Source: Chloroflexota bacterium
GTDB taxonomy: Bacteria; Chloroflexota; Ktedonobacteria; Ktedonobacterales; Ktedonobacteraceae
Length of the DNA stretch: 21,506 nt
Reading direction: 5' to 3'
Assembly (NCBI GenBank): GCA_005879655.1
Contig: VBJK01000130.1
Coordinates: forward strand, 1-21,506
Part shown: one piece after another, positions 4,264-11,917 of the stretch
Numbering within the stretch: the first letter of the stretch is position 1
Layout: the number at the start of each line of letters is the position of its first letter
Program-made: the position numbers and the translations under genes
The notes under the pieces: model-generated
Database searches by the model: none
Seen by the model: the letters and a program-made list of their open reading frames with translations, nothing else
What the model was told of the DNA's origin: nothing

Positions 4264-5340
4264 CTACGCGTCAAGCACGTCTACCTTGTTGTCAATTGCA
4301 ACAATCACTTTTTCAAACGCCGATATCACCTCGTTTATTCCGACCTCACGCCCGGCCAGCGTATCCAAGCCGACTGCTCGTTGCTGTAAGCCAGTACGCA
4401 ACAATTCCTGTTCCTCAGCACTATGGCCAGGCAGTTGTGCCAACAGATCGCTCTCCCAGTGGAGCAACACTCCTGCCTGTAATAGACTCCCGGCACGTCT
4501 TCTAATCATATCCAGCCCTCCTACTTTACGTAAGCCGACCACAGTCCCGTTCAAATAAGCCTCTCCATCCACAGCAGGGCACCCACAAGGGATGTCCCTA
4601 CAATGGTACGAATGTGCTTGGGAGGCCGATGCGTACCATTGTAGGGGCATCCCTTGTGGGTGCCCTGGTGACGGCTTATTTGACCCGTCTTGTCCCTTGT
4701 GGTTGCCCTGCGGACGGCTTATTTGAACGGGATTGAACCCTACCACAACTTCATACGGCGATACTGTCCCATAGCAAGCGCGGTTCATCAGCAGTTCGTA
4801 GCTGCGCGTTTCTGGCTGCTTGAGCAATGCTCGTTGCGTATGAGCCTCGGTAGGAGAGATTGCACGCGTCTCTATACCCAATAGGCGTAGTGCGGCAACC
4901 CATGCCTCACCAAACCAGCAATAAGACTCTACAACGTCAGCGAGAATCAGAGGATGCCCCGCTGGTAAGACCACATCGAGGCTAAGCAAGCTAGGTCCTA
5001 CCAGTACAGCGGTGCCACCAGCACGACGCTGATAGATAGGGAATGGATGTTGCGCTAATGTCGCTTGGTTGAGCACCGCTGGTTTTTGCGAGAAGCCCAA
5101 TACCAGTCCTGCTGGTTCAGCCAGGGACCAGTAGAGTGTAGCTGGATCATTTGGCTGAATAGTCGCGAGTAAGTGCTCGCTTTGTGCTATATGCTGATGC
5201 TGATCTGCAACAGTGAGCGGATAAATGCGCCCGTTATCTTTTAGCGTATGCGTCTTATCGTACACCTTTCTCGGCAAGAACCATCTTGTTTGTGAGCGGT
5301 TTAGGCCAAATTTGAGACCGTACCTACATCGATCGAGCAC
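4264..5340 (-). CDS. Biotin/lipoate A/B ligase-family protein with a 68-residue repeat-encoded insertion
   Basis: The family attaches lipoate or octanoate (or biotin) to carrier domains. The conserved core is visible: TLYWSLAEPAGLVLGFSQ (67-84), the ligand-binding RRAGGTAV (105-112), and, after the insertion, LRKVGGLDMIRRRAG, where Lys272 is the likely conserved catalytic lysine. Between VVVG (198-201) and a second VVG (267-269) lie 68 residues with no family resemblance, encoded by the palindromic repeat at 4544-4747. Without them the protein would be 290 residues with VVVGLRKVGG continuous. The insertion falls just before the catalytic-lysine loop, so activity may be altered. The start at 5340 overlaps the TPR gene end by 40 bases; a GTG at 5265 is an alternative. 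Whether it is a ligase or an octanoyltransferase cannot be told from sequence alone. Confidence 0.78.
   Translation of the reverse strand: MLDRCRYGLKFGLNRSQTRWFLPRKVYDKTHTLKDNGRIYPLTVADQHQHIAQSEHLLATIQPNDPATLYWSLAEPAGLVLGFSQKPAVLNQATLAQHPFPIYQRRAGGTAVLVGPSLLSLDVVLPAGHPLILADVVESYCWFGEAWVAALRLLGIETRAISPTEAHTQRALLKQPETRSYELLMNRACYGTVSPYEVVVGFNPVQISRPQGNHKGQDGSNKPSPGHPQGMPLQWYASASQAHSYHCRDIPCGCPAVDGEAYLNGTVVGLRKVGGLDMIRRRAGSLLQAGVLLHWESDLLAQLPGHSAEEQELLRTGLQQRAVGLDTLAGREVGINEVISAFEKVIVAIDNKVDVLDA
4544..4747. repeat. Palindromic element inserted in frame inside the lipoate-ligase-like gene
   Basis: ACCACA occurs at 4538-4543 and 4742-4747, an apparent 6-bp target duplication; the net insertion is 204 bp, exactly 68 codons. 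Between these are outer inverted repeats CCCGTTCAAATAAGCC (4546-4561) and its inverse (4716-4731). A 35-bp inner inverted repeat (4576-4610 with 4632-4666) has one mismatch. A partial tandem copy is also present: 4651-4683 is repeated at 4694-4726 with a few changes. No stop codon is created on the coding strand. The core (GTAGGGGCATCCC, GTGGGTGCCC) looks like a dispersed repeat; I recall similar sequences in Chloroflexota genomes but cannot check that here. Confidence 0.8.
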
Positions 5341-6860
5341 AAAGGACCGACCTGTGCGACATATGTCGGTAGCGTGGTGTTCTTATTATAGATGAACTCA
5401 AGGTATCTTGTCGTGCTATCTTGGCCATACCAGATCAGACCATAGCTTCCTTGTCTAACTGCTTTGATCACAAATTTCCCGTCATTCTGAATGTCACTCT
5501 TGTAGGATGTATTATCCCACATGTTAAACTCCTCAGCATTCGATATTCCATTCTTTAATCCCTGTACCAGTCCGATCTGAGTATACTTTGTAGCTGGTGT
5601 CCTGTTCTCGAATTTACCAGTTACATCCTGTGGAGCATTCAAATCTGTTTGAGCCGTCTTTCCATCGGAAGTATCGTTATACTCCTTTGCCAGCCTTTGA
5701 TAGATCGGAGTAGCACTACTACAAGTCGTCGTGCGCAGCTGTTGCCCCTGCCCCAACAGCGCCTTTGCCATATCACCATGCAACTGCTTGGCTTCGGGAG
5801 CATTAGGAAACTTCGTCAGCACAGTGTCAAAAGCACTAACAGCCGCGTCATATACCTGCTTCTGAAGACTTGCCTCACCCAAGTTATAATAAGCAGTAGC
5901 TTGCAGTGTATTGATCTGAGCAAGGCAACCAACATCACAGTACGATAGCCGCGAAACATCGTCAAAAACAGTAACCGCACTAGCATAATCCTGCGCCTGC
6001 ATCTTTTGCTGACCAAGGGCTATACGAGCGCGAATATCTCCCTGTTGGGCGCGTGATACTTGGCGAATGGTCGTGCTCGTACTGTTATTGAACTGAGAGA
6101 TGACGATAGCGAACTTGCCCATTGCTTCGTTATAAAGATGGGCATCGTGCAAGGCCAATCCCCAGGAGGTATAAGTACGTGCCAGATCTTCCCCTTCCGG
6201 AGCTTTTTCTCCACCGAGAGTATACTCGTTAATAGCCTCCTGCCAATTCTGCCGATTCTCTAACCAATGAGCTTGTGCTACATGCAGGTTTGGTTGCAAG
6301 AGCTGGCTAGCTCCAGAGTAAGCAAAAAGGACAAGTATACAGATGATAGAGGTCAAATATTGCTTGCGGCGCGTTGGATTGAGAGAAGATGACATGCCGT
6401 CCCGTGTACGCACTCCAAATACTAGCACGAGGATGATTCCAATGATTAGTGCAGCAAGAGATGCATTTGCTGCTCCCGCAGCCCAGTCACTTCCAGTAAG
6501 ATGCAGCACTATGAAAAACACTACAACGAGAGCAATGCTACTTATAAGTGCCCAAAATGGGAGGGGGTGTGCTAGTTTGCCAGGCTGCTTTGGCGTTGGT
6601 GGAACAGGAGGCTGTTGTTGAGAGCCTTGCATTCCCCAGGCGGCAGGAGGCTGTTGTTGATGGCCTTGCATTCCCCAGGCGGTAGGAGGCTGTTGTTGAG
6701 AGCCTTGCATTCCCCAGGCGGTAGGAGGCTGTTGTTGATGGCCTTGCATTCCCCAGGCGGCAGGAGGCTGTTGTTGAGAGCCTTGCATTCCCCAGGCGGC
6801 AGCTTGTTGAGTAGGGATTTCCTCACCCGGATCATATGGAAACTCCCTCAGCATAGGCAT
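5301..6860 (-). CDS. Membrane-anchored TPR-like protein, 5' end displaced by a transposase-gene fragment
   Basis: About 519 residues from the ATG at 6860; the native start is probably at 7059 (see the entry at 6976-7059). In order it has a short acidic N-terminus (MLREFPYDPGEE), five 13-residue Gln/Pro/Trp repeats (AWGMQG S/H QQQPP), and two hydrophobic segments (ALISSIALVVVFFIVLHL and LAALIIGIILVLVFGV). A basic loop and a third membrane segment (LTSIICILVLFAYSG) follow. The large C-terminal region has TPR-like helices (ARTYTSWGLALHDAHLYNEAMGKF, ATAYYNLGEASLQKQVYDAAVSAF) and ends in a beta-rich domain. A scaffold role at the membrane is inferred; no catalytic motif is visible. Bases 6854-7014 are a foreign tnpA/tnpB fragment, so the usable starts (GTG 6896, ATG 6860, ATG 6854) lie in or at the edge of it without a clear ribosome binding site. 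The gene may be poorly translated. Confidence 0.75.
   Translation of the reverse strand: MPMLREFPYDPGEEIPTQQAAAWGMQGSQQQPPAAWGMQGHQQQPPTAWGMQGSQQQPPTAWGMQGHQQQPPAAWGMQGSQQQPPVPPTPKQPGKLAHPLPFWALISSIALVVVFFIVLHLTGSDWAAGAANASLAALIIGIILVLVFGVRTRDGMSSSLNPTRRKQYLTSIICILVLFAYSGASQLLQPNLHVAQAHWLENRQNWQEAINEYTLGGEKAPEGEDLARTYTSWGLALHDAHLYNEAMGKFAIVISQFNNSTSTTIRQVSRAQQGDIRARIALGQQKMQAQDYASAVTVFDDVSRLSYCDVGCLAQINTLQATAYYNLGEASLQKQVYDAAVSAFDTVLTKFPNAPEAKQLHGDMAKALLGQGQQLRTTTCSSATPIYQRLAKEYNDTSDGKTAQTDLNAPQDVTGKFENRTPATKYTQIGLVQGLKNGISNAEEFNMWDNTSYKSDIQNDGKFVIKAVRQGSYGLIWYGQDSTTRYLEFIYNKNTTLPTYVAQVGPLCSIDVGTVSNLA
6607..6801 (-). repeat. Five tandem 39-bp repeats inside the TPR-protein gene
   Basis: Five exact-length units start at 6607, 6646, 6685, 6724 and 6763, each encoding AWGMQG-S/H-QQQPP plus A or T. 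Units 1, 3 and 5 carry GAGAGCC (Ser) and units 2 and 4 carry GATGGCC (His), an alternating higher-order pattern that points to expansion of a 78-bp pair. Length variation would keep the frame. Confidence 0.9.
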
Positions 6861-7014
6861 CACGACGCTCGGAAAGGGCAGCGTTATAGAGTTCACGACA
6901 ACGAGTAAGCGTCCAGAAGAGTTTCCTCTCTTGCTCTTTGTTGGGATATATCCGGTACTTGAATGCCTTGCGCATCTATCTATCCCTCTGTGTTTCCACG
7001 TACTTTTTCAGTGT
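6854..7014 (-). mobile_element. 161-bp exact inverted copy of the tnpA/tnpB junction
   Basis: Read on the minus strand this segment is identical to plus-strand 7994-8154 with no gap. It contains the last 12 codons of tnpA (LKKYVETQRDR and stop) and the first 41 codons of tnpB. Identity stops sharply at both ends. The flanking sequences share CCTA (AAACCTA on one side, GATGCCTA on the other), so a microhomology-mediated insertion fits. It separates the native start of the TPR gene from its body. Confidence 0.9.
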
Positions 7015-7537: not shown

Positions 7538-7595
7538 ACCCCTATCCGGTCTCGTCAGGGGGATAGAAGGCGCAAGGGTATGGTACTAGATAGTG

Positions 7596-7624
7596 TTGTG
7601 CTATCTATCCTTTTATGGTATACT
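7596..7624 (+). promoter_or_regulatory. Possible tnpA promoter
   Basis: TTGTGC (7596-7601) and TATACT (7619-7624) are separated by 17 bases and lie just before the tnpA ATG at 7631. The -10 is close to consensus and the -35 is weak. Transcripts would have almost no leader, in keeping with poorly expressed transposases. Confidence 0.3.
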
Positions 7625-7630
7625 GTGAGC

Positions 7631-8032
7631 ATGAGTAGGATAGACATCAAGACAAATAACAACATTGCGTACATCTGTCGGTATCACGTGGTGTTTTGCC
7701 CAAAGTATCGACGAAAAGTGCTAACTCCGCCCATTGATGCACGTCTGAAAGAGCTTATGCTTGAAACAATCGAGAAATGGGGACAAGAGTTTATCGAGAT
7801 GGAGGTCATGCCAGATCATGTACACTTGCTTGTGGGATGTGACCCACAATTTGGGATACATCGACTGGTCAAGTACATCAAAGGAACGAGCAGCCGCTAC
7901 TTGCGGCAAGAGTTCCCGCAACTCAAGAAGAGATTACCAAGCTTGTGGACAAATGCGTACTTCGTAGCGACAACAGGCGGTGTGACACTGGAAACACTGA
8001 AAAAGTACGTGGAAACACAGAGGGATAGATAG
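7631..8032 (+). CDS. tnpA: IS200/IS605 Y1 (HUH) transposase TnpA
   Basis: The 133-residue single-domain HUH endonuclease would cut and rejoin single-stranded element ends. The metal-binding HUH motif is PDHVHLL with His63 and His65, and the catalytic tyrosine is Tyr126 in LKKYVETQ. The usual YHVVFCPKYRRKVL motif is near the N-terminus. Length is within the family norm. The ATG at 7631 is preferred over an upstream in-frame ATG at 7580 because MSRIDIKTNN matches the usual N-terminus. Its stop TAG touches the tnpB ATG directly, so the two are probably translationally coupled. No frameshift is visible, so activity is plausible. Confidence 0.93.
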   Translation: MSRIDIKTNNNIAYICRYHVVFCPKYRRKVLTPPIDARLKELMLETIEKWGQEFIEMEVMPDHVHLLVGCDPQFGIHRLVKYIKGTSSRYLRQEFPQLKKRLPSLWTNAYFVATTGGVTLETLKKYVETQRDR

Positions 8033-9232
8033 ATGCGCAAGGCATTCAAGTACCGGATATATCCCAACAAAGAGCAAGAGAGGAAACTCTTCTGGACGCT
8101 TACTCGTTGTCGTGAACTCTATAACGCTGCCCTTTCCGAGCGTCGTGATGCCTACACATACGAACGCAAGAGCATTACCTATCGCATGCAACAAAATGAT
8201 TTGCCTGAGATCAGAGATCTCCTCCGAGAGGAATACCAACAGATCCATTCTCAGGTCCTACAAGACGTGCTTAAGCGTCTAGAAAAAGCCTTTCAACACT
8301 TCTTCCGGCGGGTCATGAATGGCGAAAAGCCTGGGTATCCCAGGTTCCAAGGACGCAATCGGTACAATTCCTTCACCTACCCACAGGGTGGCTACACCCT
8401 TTCTGAGAAGTCTGTCACCCTCGGCAAGATTGGGACCATCAAATGCGTTGTGCATCGTCCAATGGAGGGACAAGCTAAGACGTGCACGACCAAATATGAG
8501 TCAGGACAGTGGTATGTGGTTTTCTCATGTGACGTCAAAGAGCCAGAGCGTTTGCCCGGAGTTGAGAGTGAAGTGGGCATTGATCTGGGGGGCACCCATT
8601 TTGCGGCGCTCTCTGATGGCACATTCATAGAGAACCCTCGTCACTTTCGCAAGGCCGAGAAGCTACTACAACGCCGCAGCCAAGTCTTGTCCAGAAAGAA
8701 GCAGAGAAGTCATCGGCGAGAAAAAGCTCGTCGGTTAGTTACTAAAGCACACCGGAAGATCCTCAACCAGCGCCGTGATTTTCACCATCAACAATCTCGT
8801 CAACTGGTAGACACGCGCTCGCTCATCGTGTTTGAAGATTTGCAGATAGCGAACCTCACCAAAGCGCCAAAGCCGAAACAGGATGAGGCAACGGGGCACT
8901 ATCTGCCCAATGGAGCGGTAGCCAAAGGCGGTTTGAACAAGTCGATATTAGATGCTGGTTGGGCGATCTTTCAACAGATGTGTACGTACAAGGCAGCATG
9001 GGCCGGTCGTACTGTTATGTTGGTAGACCCTAAATTCACCAGTCAAGTTTGTAGTGGGTGTGGCACCTTTCGCAAAAAGGATCTCTCTGAACGATGGCAT
9101 TCATGCTCTTGTGGCGTCTCTCTGGATAGAGACACGAATGCAGCGGTGAACATCCTGTATAGAGGCAAAAAACAACTGCTTGGTGTGGAAGACGCCAACA
9201 GGGCAAAACCTGTAGAAGCTCCTTGTCTTTAG
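8033..9232 (+). CDS. tnpB: RNA-guided nuclease TnpB (OrfB) of an IS200/IS605 element
   Basis: The 399-residue protein has all expected parts: an N-terminal helix-turn-helix region (MRKAFKYRIYPNKEQ), RuvC-I in VGIDLGG with Asp184, RuvC-II in LIVFEDL with Glu268, a zinc ribbon with Cys340/343 and Cys358/360, and RuvC-III in LDRDTNAA (Asp365/367). Family members are omega-RNA-guided DNA nucleases, ancestors of Cas12, that help keep the element in place. The coding end is unusual in that the stop codon lies within the right-end hairpin, so any guide RNA must overlap the 3' coding sequence. The last residues (VEAPCL) are typical of this subgroup. An exact 161-bp copy of its first 41 codons and the tnpA end is inverted at 6854-7014. 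Confidence 0.93.
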   Translation: MRKAFKYRIYPNKEQERKLFWTLTRCRELYNAALSERRDAYTYERKSITYRMQQNDLPEIRDLLREEYQQIHSQVLQDVLKRLEKAFQHFFRRVMNGEKPGYPRFQGRNRYNSFTYPQGGYTLSEKSVTLGKIGTIKCVVHRPMEGQAKTCTTKYESGQWYVVFSCDVKEPERLPGVESEVGIDLGGTHFAALSDGTFIENPRHFRKAEKLLQRRSQVLSRKKQRSHRREKARRLVTKAHRKILNQRRDFHHQQSRQLVDTRSLIVFEDLQIANLTKAPKPKQDEATGHYLPNGAVAKGGLNKSILDAGWAIFQQMCTYKAAWAGRTVMLVDPKFTSQVCSGCGTFRKKDLSERWHSCSCGVSLDRDTNAAVNILYRGKKQLLGVEDANRAKPVEAPCL

Positions 9233-11272: not shown

Positions 11273-11839
11273 TTGGGTAATGCAACAACCGCCGATTTTC
11301 GTAACGGCATGGTCATACGTTTTAACAATGAACTTTACACAATTACTGAATTCCATCACGTCAGTCCTGGCAACTGGCGCGCTTTTGTACGTACACGCCT
11401 GAAGAATCTGAAAAATGGTCGTGTGATCGAGCAACGTTTCCGCGCCGGTGAGGAAATTGATGAGGTGCGCGTCGAGCATCAGAACTGGCAATTCCTGTAT
11501 GTTGATGGTAGCGATTATATCTTTATGAATACCGAGAGCTATGACCAGCAGCCCATCCCCAAAGATATGCTGGGAGACGCCATCAAATTTTTGAAGGAGC
11601 AGGATGAGGTAGAGATGCTCGTTGATGGCGAAAAGATCATTGCGGTAGAGTTGCCAAACTTCCTGGCTCTGGTCGTTGAAAGCGCTGAACCTGGCGTACG
11701 TGGCGATACGGCAAACAATGTCACCAAGCCCGCTACATTGGAGACTGGTGCAGTGGTGAATGTGCCTTTGTTTGTTAATCCTGGGGATAGGATTCGTATT
11801 GATACGCGTACTGGGCAGTATGTGGAGCGTGTGAAGTAG
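11273..11839 (+). CDS. efp: Elongation factor P with Asn at the tip position
   Basis: The 188-residue EF-P binds the ribosomal E site and relieves stalling at polyproline. The KOW-like domain I begins TTADFRNGM and is followed by two OB domains ending in PLFVNPGDRIRIDTRTGQYVERVK, all typical. The TTG at 11273 is chosen because AGAGGA lies eight bases upstream and the length matches the family; a TTG at 11216 would overlap the previous gene. The domain I loop reads HHVSPGNWRAF. With this start the residue aligned to the modified Lys34 of E. coli (PGKG) is Asn34, so lysylation or Arg rhamnosylation at that site is impossible. I believe PGNWR-type EF-Ps occur as a separate clade, so this is probably natural variation. 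The final codons lie in a large palindrome. Confidence 0.95.
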   Translation: MGNATTADFRNGMVIRFNNELYTITEFHHVSPGNWRAFVRTRLKNLKNGRVIEQRFRAGEEIDEVRVEHQNWQFLYVDGSDYIFMNTESYDQQPIPKDMLGDAIKFLKEQDEVEMLVDGEKIIAVELPNFLALVVESAEPGVRGDTANNVTKPATLETGAVVNVPLFVNPGDRIRIDTRTGQYVERVK

Positions 11840-11917
11840 AGTAGCACCATATAAAAGCAGCATAATACGTATTACGTATTATGCTGCTTTTATATGGTGC
11901 TACTCTACTTCACACGC
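11827..11917. terminator. 91-bp perfect palindrome between convergent efp and dgkA
   Basis: Arms of 45 bp (11827-11871 and 11873-11917) are exact inverse complements around a single central T. The left arm begins in the last codons of efp and includes its stop. The right arm ends eight bases before the dgkA stop. It most likely acts as a bidirectional terminator for the convergent genes, but the arms are far longer than usual and there is no classical GC stem with T-run. DNA like this can extrude as a cruciform. Confidence 0.8.

What the first reader, a model, noticed from the sequence alone, without database searches (positions are those of the whole stretch)
4538..4747. Palindromic repeat inserted in frame within a lipoate-ligase-family gene (Rickettsia-palindromic-element-like)
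The sequence shows a direct duplication ACCACA at both edges, a net insertion of exactly 204 bp (68 codons), nested inverted repeats (16 bp outer; 35 bp inner with one mismatch), and no stop codon on the coding strand. Removing one unit joins VVVG to LRKVGGLDMIRRR, which restores the expected catalytic-lysine loop of the family. In-frame protein-coding palindromes are known from Rickettsia; I do not know of such a case in Chloroflexota. The core resembles a dispersed repeat, which would make it a mobile family able to enter genes and add peptide segments.
Basis: partly seen in the sequence, partly recalled or inferred. Interest (0 to 1): 0.85.

Follow-up and report, generated by a model that had tools for sequence, protein, structure and literature searches.

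The report
Mobile hairpin inserted within lipoate ligase
A small, apparently mobile DNA hairpin landed in frame inside a bacterium's lipoate-ligase-like gene and adds about 68 amino acids without breaking the reading frame, a known kind of event seen here with an unusual composite element.

Summary
ORF 4264-5340(-) is a lipoate-ligase-family gene with a clean 204-bp (68-codon) in-frame insertion just before a conserved lysine. Of 120 homologs compared, only P0001, the nearest, carries it. The insert is best read as a 194-bp non-autonomous element (4542-4735): its ends match terminal repeats of IS4-family insertion sequences in relatives (class Ktedonobacteria), an imperfect 10-12 bp duplication flanks it, and inside lies a tail-to-tail pair of GTAG-type REP hairpins plus a 43-bp duplication. 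A relative, G006, has elements of the same design. It acts like a Rickettsia palindromic element but is not one: the CGTC tag is absent. In other relatives REP units also sit in frame inside conserved genes (clearest: malate synthase). Intragenic REPs are already published for other bacteria. Most unusual: window and P0001 appear to carry the hairpin loop in opposite orientations, both open. AlphaFold keeps the enzyme fold and leaves the insert disordered, but the host protein departs from conserved residues more than most homologs, so lost or altered function is a serious rival. No genome is held for the window, so copy number there is unknown.

The parts
4264..5340 (-). Host gene: lipoate-protein-ligase-family ORF, 358 aa with insert (290 without)
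   Evidence: PF21948 E 1.7e-12 over residues 48-160; 16 uninserted homologs 63-86% identical
4532..4543 (.). Target duplication, copy 1 (AAGCCGACCACA; 4532-4541 if the terminal repeat starts at 4542)
   Evidence: Direct repeat D2, 10 of 12 identical, spacing 204
4736..4747 (.). Target duplication, copy 2 (AACCCTACCACA)
4542..4561 (+). Left terminal inverted repeat CAGTCCCGTTCAAATAAGCC
   Evidence: Pairs 19 of 20 with 4716-4735; close to the IS4 end CAATRCCRTTCAAATAAG of relatives
4716..4735 (-). Right terminal inverted repeat; reads CAATCCCGTTCAAATAAGCC on the - strand
   Evidence: Fits CAATMCCGTTCAAATAAG exactly
4575..4601 (-). REP unit 1; on the - strand begins GTAGGGACATCCC
   Evidence: Part of the 42-nt inverted repeat; the core matches places in 8 of 47 genomes of the class at E 0.001
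4641..4667 (+). REP unit 2, GTAGGGGCATCCCTTGTGGGTGCCCTG; GTAG ends face inward, a tail-to-tail dimer
   Evidence: GTAG and TT definitions from PMC3733652 section 5
4611..4631 (.). Hairpin loop with flanking bases (21 nt), which appears reverse-complemented in P0001
   Evidence: Inverting this stretch cuts mismatches to P0001 over residues 229-256 from 6 to 2 of 28
4650..4735 (.). Two 43-bp direct copies (REP half plus terminal-repeat-like end), 84% identical
   Evidence: D1; without one copy the element is 151 bp, against 145, 153 and 153 bp for three of four G006 elements measured, the fourth 106 bp
4542..4735 (.). Whole inserted element, 194 bp

Best explanation
A 194-bp non-autonomous element with IS4-type ends, carrying an inverted pair of GTAG REP hairpins, was inserted into a lipoate-ligase-family gene in an ancestor of this lineage (nearest relatives: class Ktedonobacteria), most likely by an IS4-family transposase acting in trans, and duplicated 10-12 bp of the gene. 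Element plus duplication add 204 bp and the frame is open, so the gene now encodes a 68-residue extra loop at the turn before the conserved lysine. Shown: insertion, ends, REP dimer, absence from the 119 other homologs compared, open frame. Inferred: the transposase acting in trans, and that the protein is made, folds and stays at least partly active with the insert as a floppy surface loop. The insert itself most likely has no selected function.
For: Clean insertion against 119 of 120 homologs. The end motif CAATMCCGTTCAAATAAG with up to 2 mismatches occurs at 110 places in 23 of 47 class genomes, against 13 for the reversed control (summed). In G001 the ends lie 1524 bp apart (5 fetched) or 148 bp apart (4 fetched); the one 1524-bp element tested and the 1510-bp element of G036 encode PF13006+PF01609 transposases (NF033592 E 3.8e-55 for the first). 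Direct flanking duplications of 11-13 bp are exact at 9 of these 11 loci (L183-L193, including one 3056-bp copy); the G036 copy sits at ACCACAAGGGT, the REP loop motif. G006 has elements with similar ends around a REP dimer and a REP-flanked RAYT-like gene. Of 95 positions conserved in at least 95% of 118 other homologs the window departs at 2 and P0001 at 1, within the usual range: 38 of 118 depart at 2 or more. AlphaFold: 202 of 358 residues at pLDDT 90 or more, segments 204-234 and 236-266 below 50, between strands 198-201 and 270-280; best Foldseek hits are lipoate ligases. Window and P0001 differ at 8 of 68 insert residues but 1 of 289 others.
Against: No full-length copy of this element was found: the matches seen in relatives cover only the core or the ends, and the window's genome is not held. 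The duplication is imperfect (8 of 10 or 10 of 12). In relatives the flanks are not always direct duplications: L190 fails and L191 has a mismatch (G001); L194 (G004), L195 (G031), and L016 and L198 (G006) have inverted or no clear repeats; L196, L197, L199 and L202 only partial ones. At positions conserved in at least 90% of 118 homologs the window departs at 6 of 120 and P0001 at 5, against 1 for P0002; only 6 of 118 others depart at 6 or more, a sign of relaxed constraint. V274G lies two residues after the conserved lysine in both carriers. The first AlphaFold model, from 18 sequences, was poor (pLDDT 37). The DNA of P0001 was not seen, and 5 of the 8 insert differences probably come from one inversion.
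Confidence: 0.7

Rival explanations
1. The insertion inactivated or crippled the gene; the frame is open by chance and the gene is drifting.
For: About 1 in 15 shuffles is stop-free; 6 departures at 90%-conserved positions in the window, reached by only 6 of 118 other homologs; strong mRNA hairpin; in two relatives, G009 and G010, a TAG lies inside the matched stretch.
Against: Frame open in two distinct sequences; their host parts differ at 1 of 289 residues; at 95%-conserved positions the departures are ordinary; 27 of 29 class genomes with a match better than 1e-70 show a single match, so no obvious spare copy in relatives.
Confidence: 0.28
2. Pure RAYT/REP event: the REP dimer moved as a REPIN-like unit and the outer repeats are secondary.
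For: REP dimers of about 90 bp occur without the outer ends in G047; one RAYT-like gene in G006 is flanked by REPs.
Against: The outer 20-nt repeats sit at the very edges next to the duplication and match IS4 ends.
Confidence: 0.15
3. Assembly artefact or chimera.
For: Hairpins are hard to assemble; the window holds other perfect inverted repeats.
Against: P0001, from an ENA contig of 22155 bases, carries the insert with its own differences; mobile-element ends and a target duplication.
Confidence: 0.05
4. The insert is removed at RNA or protein level (intron-like or bypassed).
For: Strong hairpin in the transcript.
Against: No Rfam match reaches a gathering score: 8 miRNA-type rows and 1 sRNA row, all below; the frame stays open, which removal would not require.
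Confidence: 0.03

Closest known systems
GTAG REP families and intragenic REPs (Di Nocera et al. 2013, PMC3733652; abstract, sections 5 and 15 and passages read)
   Same: GTAG-ended hairpins, tail-to-tail dimers, some units entirely inside ORFs; clusters encode 43 to 82 aa; many in replication and repair genes
   Different: Here the dimer sits inside IS4-type ends; 'Ktedonobacter' does not occur in that text
IS4-family MITEs, and REP-targeting IS4 elements such as ISRm22 (Tobes and Pareja 2006, PMC1525189; passages read)
   Same: IS4-type ends; REP-like palindromic targets in some relatives
   Different: ISRm22 makes 6-bp repeats; here 11-13 bp in relatives and an imperfect 10-12 bp in the window; the window target is a gene, not a REP
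Rickettsia palindromic elements (as summarised in PMC3733652 and PMC10969869, passages read)
   Same: In-frame palindromic insertion that lengthens a protein of known family
   Different: They end in CGTC; no sequence relationship was shown or tested beyond the end tag

Membership tests
GTAG REP | Palindromic unit of 20-40 bp ending in GTAG | tested here: met
   4641-4667(+) and 4575-4601(-)
GTAG REP | Many copies in the genome | not testable with these tools
   Own genome not held; in relatives, 21 copies in G018 and 15 in G019 of a related unit within 3 mismatches, 21 matches in G006
GTAG REP | Association with a RAYT gene | tested here: inconclusive
   Loci of 30 of 42 Y1_Tnp matches were scanned with two REP patterns: 1 of 30, in G006, is flanked by them; it matches NF047646 at 64 bits, below the cut-off of 80
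IS4-family MITE | Terminal repeats shared with an autonomous IS4 element | tested here: met
   By motif, with elements of relatives G001 and G036; no partner in the window's own genome could be sought
IS4-family MITE | Target duplication of 11-13 bp as in relatives | tested here: inconclusive
   10 bp with 8 matches or 12 bp with 10 matches
IS4-family MITE | Several copies in the same genome | not testable with these tools
Rickettsia palindromic element | CGTC tag at one end of the palindrome | tested here: not met
   Units end in GTAG; CGTC statement from PMC3733652
Rickettsia palindromic element | In-frame insertion within an ORF | tested here: met

The most novel reading that the evidence does not exclude
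Ktedonobacteria carry a running system of protein-coding palindromes: REP hairpins and IS4-end composites enter conserved genes in frame, and recombination between hairpin arms flips the loop in place, always length-neutral, so that strains display alternative peptides from one gene.
Probability: 0.15. Interest if true: 0.7.

Novelty: new variant of a known kind. Interest (0 to 1): 0.45.

Why it matters
It extends in-frame palindromic insertion to another bacterial class and shows a composite of two mobile systems, IS4 ends and a REP dimer, inside an enzyme gene. In-frame REPs in repair and replication genes of Ktedonobacteria echo a pattern reported for other bacteria. The apparent loop inversion offers a simple test of whether hairpin recombination can recode a protein segment without breaking the frame.

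Tried and rejected
Search of the insert peptide (residues 199-268) against the protein database returned only P0001, from 2 candidates: no sign of the same peptide in unrelated proteins of similar length. Plasmid DNA search with the insert: no match. The window-type end ATCCCGTTCAAATAAGCC with up to 3 mismatches gave 139 places against 58 for the control over 47 genomes (summed), a weak excess; the pattern was clearer. The first AlphaFold job was unusable. Rfam rows are below cut-off and were rejected. A count of chance inverted repeats (21 of 2000 shuffles) probably reflects self-palindromes and is not used. The idea that the 43-bp duplication restored the frame after a 161-bp net insertion fits arithmetically (161 + 43 = 204) but cannot be told from a 194-bp mobile unit; G006 also shows tandem end-plus-REP pieces. 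Stop-free frames over REPs (10 of 15 G019 copies, 11 of 21 G018 copies) were dropped as evidence because such frames are expected to be common; only Pfam-supported cases are used. Literature listings seen without a description of this element: (open-licence PubMed Central only).

Full report
Observation. The window carries a 358-aa ORF on the minus strand, 4264-5340, that matches the lipoyl ligase catalytic domain PF21948 (E 1.7e-12, residues 48-160) and no NCBIfam model at E 0.1. In an alignment of 18 sequences the 16 uninserted homologs are 63-86% identical to it and lack the 68 residues. Of 814 proteins passing the search the 120 listed were compared: P0001 has the insert, the other 119 do not.

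Site in the enzyme. The lysine after the insert, K272, is invariant in both alignments and aligns with residue 145 of T. acidophilum LplA in a weak second segment (8.3 bits) of a PDB sequence match; that this is the catalytic lysine is recalled, not tested. With 89 sequences AlphaFold gives a lipoate-ligase-like fold (mean pLDDT 76.5) and leaves residues 204-266 almost wholly below 50; the best Foldseek hits are lipoate ligases. The insert therefore extends a turn between two strands. An earlier model from 18 sequences was poor.

What the insert is. From the outside in: an imperfect 12-bp duplication; 20-nt terminal repeats; two inverted GTAG hairpin units tail to tail; and, on the right, two 43-bp copies of a REP half plus an end. 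A search of 47 genomes of the class of G006 with the 204 bp gave matches in 8 at E 0.001, all partial and mostly on the hairpin. The motif CAATMCCGTTCAAATAAG with up to two mismatches was found in 23 of 47 genomes, 110 places against 13 for the reversed control (summed). In G001 I fetched five elements of 1524 bp, four of 148 bp and one of 3056 bp holding a further ORF. One 1524-bp element and the 1510-bp element of G036 were tested and encode Nterm_IS4 plus DDE_Tnp_1 proteins (NF033592 for the first). At 9 of these 11 loci the flanks are exact direct repeats of 11-13 bp by my reading; L191 has one mismatch and L190 fails. In G004 (L194) and G031 (L195) no clear direct repeat is seen, and L196 and L197 show partial ones. 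G036's copy lies in ACCACAAGGGT, the loop motif of the REPs.

Same design in a relative. In G006, L016, L198 and L199 are 145, 153 and 153 bp with similar ends around a REP dimer; L202 is a 106-bp short form. L016 and L198 are flanked by inverted REP halves, which prove no duplication; L199 and L202 have near-matching direct flanks. The window element without one 43-bp copy is 151 bp. G006 also has a RAYT-like ORF (L138) with REPs on both sides.

Is it general? In G018 and G019, REP units (21 and 15 copies within 3 mismatches) lie inside stop-free frames with Pfam support: RecF-like (PF02463; the name RecF is my inference), RecG, FtsZ, GT87, VWA and Type ISP in G019; PolA and SMC in G018. A related unit in G019 malate synthase is the clearest: the 29 other sequences aligned, from 30 loci returned, lack the seven residues. 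The RecF-like case lies in a linker of variable length, with the REP peptide in 1 of 29 aligned sequences; one of 30 loci, L251, dropped out. LeuRS and an amidohydrolase look to have the unit upstream of the true start. Six frames and two alternative frames gave no family; spanning frames at L044, L095, L217, L225, L226, L229 and L234 were not scanned. G006 has a REP dimer in frame in an eCIS_core ORF.

Two versions of the loop. Start codon set aside, window and P0001 differ at 8 of 68 insert residues and 1 of 289 others (Fisher p 9e-6; without the loop 3 of 60 against 1 of 289, p 0.017). Inverting 21 nt (4611-4631) of the window reduces mismatches over residues 229-256 from 6 to 2 of 28 without a stop. 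The simplest account is recombination or template switching between hairpin arms. P0001's DNA was not seen, so an assembly cause is not excluded.

Is the host protein sound? At positions conserved in at least 95% of 118 other homologs the window departs at 2 of 95, which 38 of 118 also reach. At 90% it departs at 6 of 120 (W37G, Q48H, R141C, L193V, V274G, L304P), P0001 at 5 and P0002 at 1; 6 of 118 others reach 6 and 15 reach 5. The carriers therefore look somewhat relaxed. The two differences within the duplicated target fall at synonymous third codon positions (GTA/GTC, GGG/GGC), too few to weigh.

Mechanism and rivals. I favour IS4-type transposition in trans and later toleration (0.7). Loss or change of function is the main rival (0.28) and partly overlaps, since the origin of the insert is the same in both.

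Known or new. Intragenic GTAG and CGTC REPs, with clusters encoding 43 to 82 residues and many in repair genes, were reported in 2013 (PMC3733652, sections 5 and 15 read), and an IS4 element that targets REPs in 2006 (PMC1525189, passages). A 2024 review calls in-frame fusions by intragenic MITEs not unusual (PMC10969869, passages). New here, as far as the listed searches show, are the class, the composite build and the apparent loop flip.

Noticed in passing
window 6854-7014 and 7994-8154: Perfect 161-bp inverted repeat; one arm covers the start of ORF 5301-6896, the other the tnpA/tnpB junction of an IS200/IS605-type element (ORFs 7580-8032 and 8033-9232). May be a duplication or an assembly fold-back.
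   Followed up: no
window 11827-11917: Perfect 45-bp palindrome with a 1-nt centre, overlapping the ends of two opposed ORFs.
   Followed up: no
window 6606-6839: 39-bp tandem repeats in ORF 5301-6896, encoding a 13-residue repeat rich in Q and P.
   Followed up: no
L046 1504-1528 (G019): REP-encoded seven-residue insertion in malate synthase, absent from the 29 other sequences aligned.
   Followed up: yes
L206, L218, L221, L203 (G018, G019): In-frame REP peptides in RecF-like, PolA, SMC and RecG proteins, echoing the repair-gene bias reported for other bacteria.
   Followed up: partly
L138 700-2100 (G006): RAYT-like gene flanked by REPs and by tandem end-plus-REP pieces similar to the window's 43-bp repeat.
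   Followed up: partly
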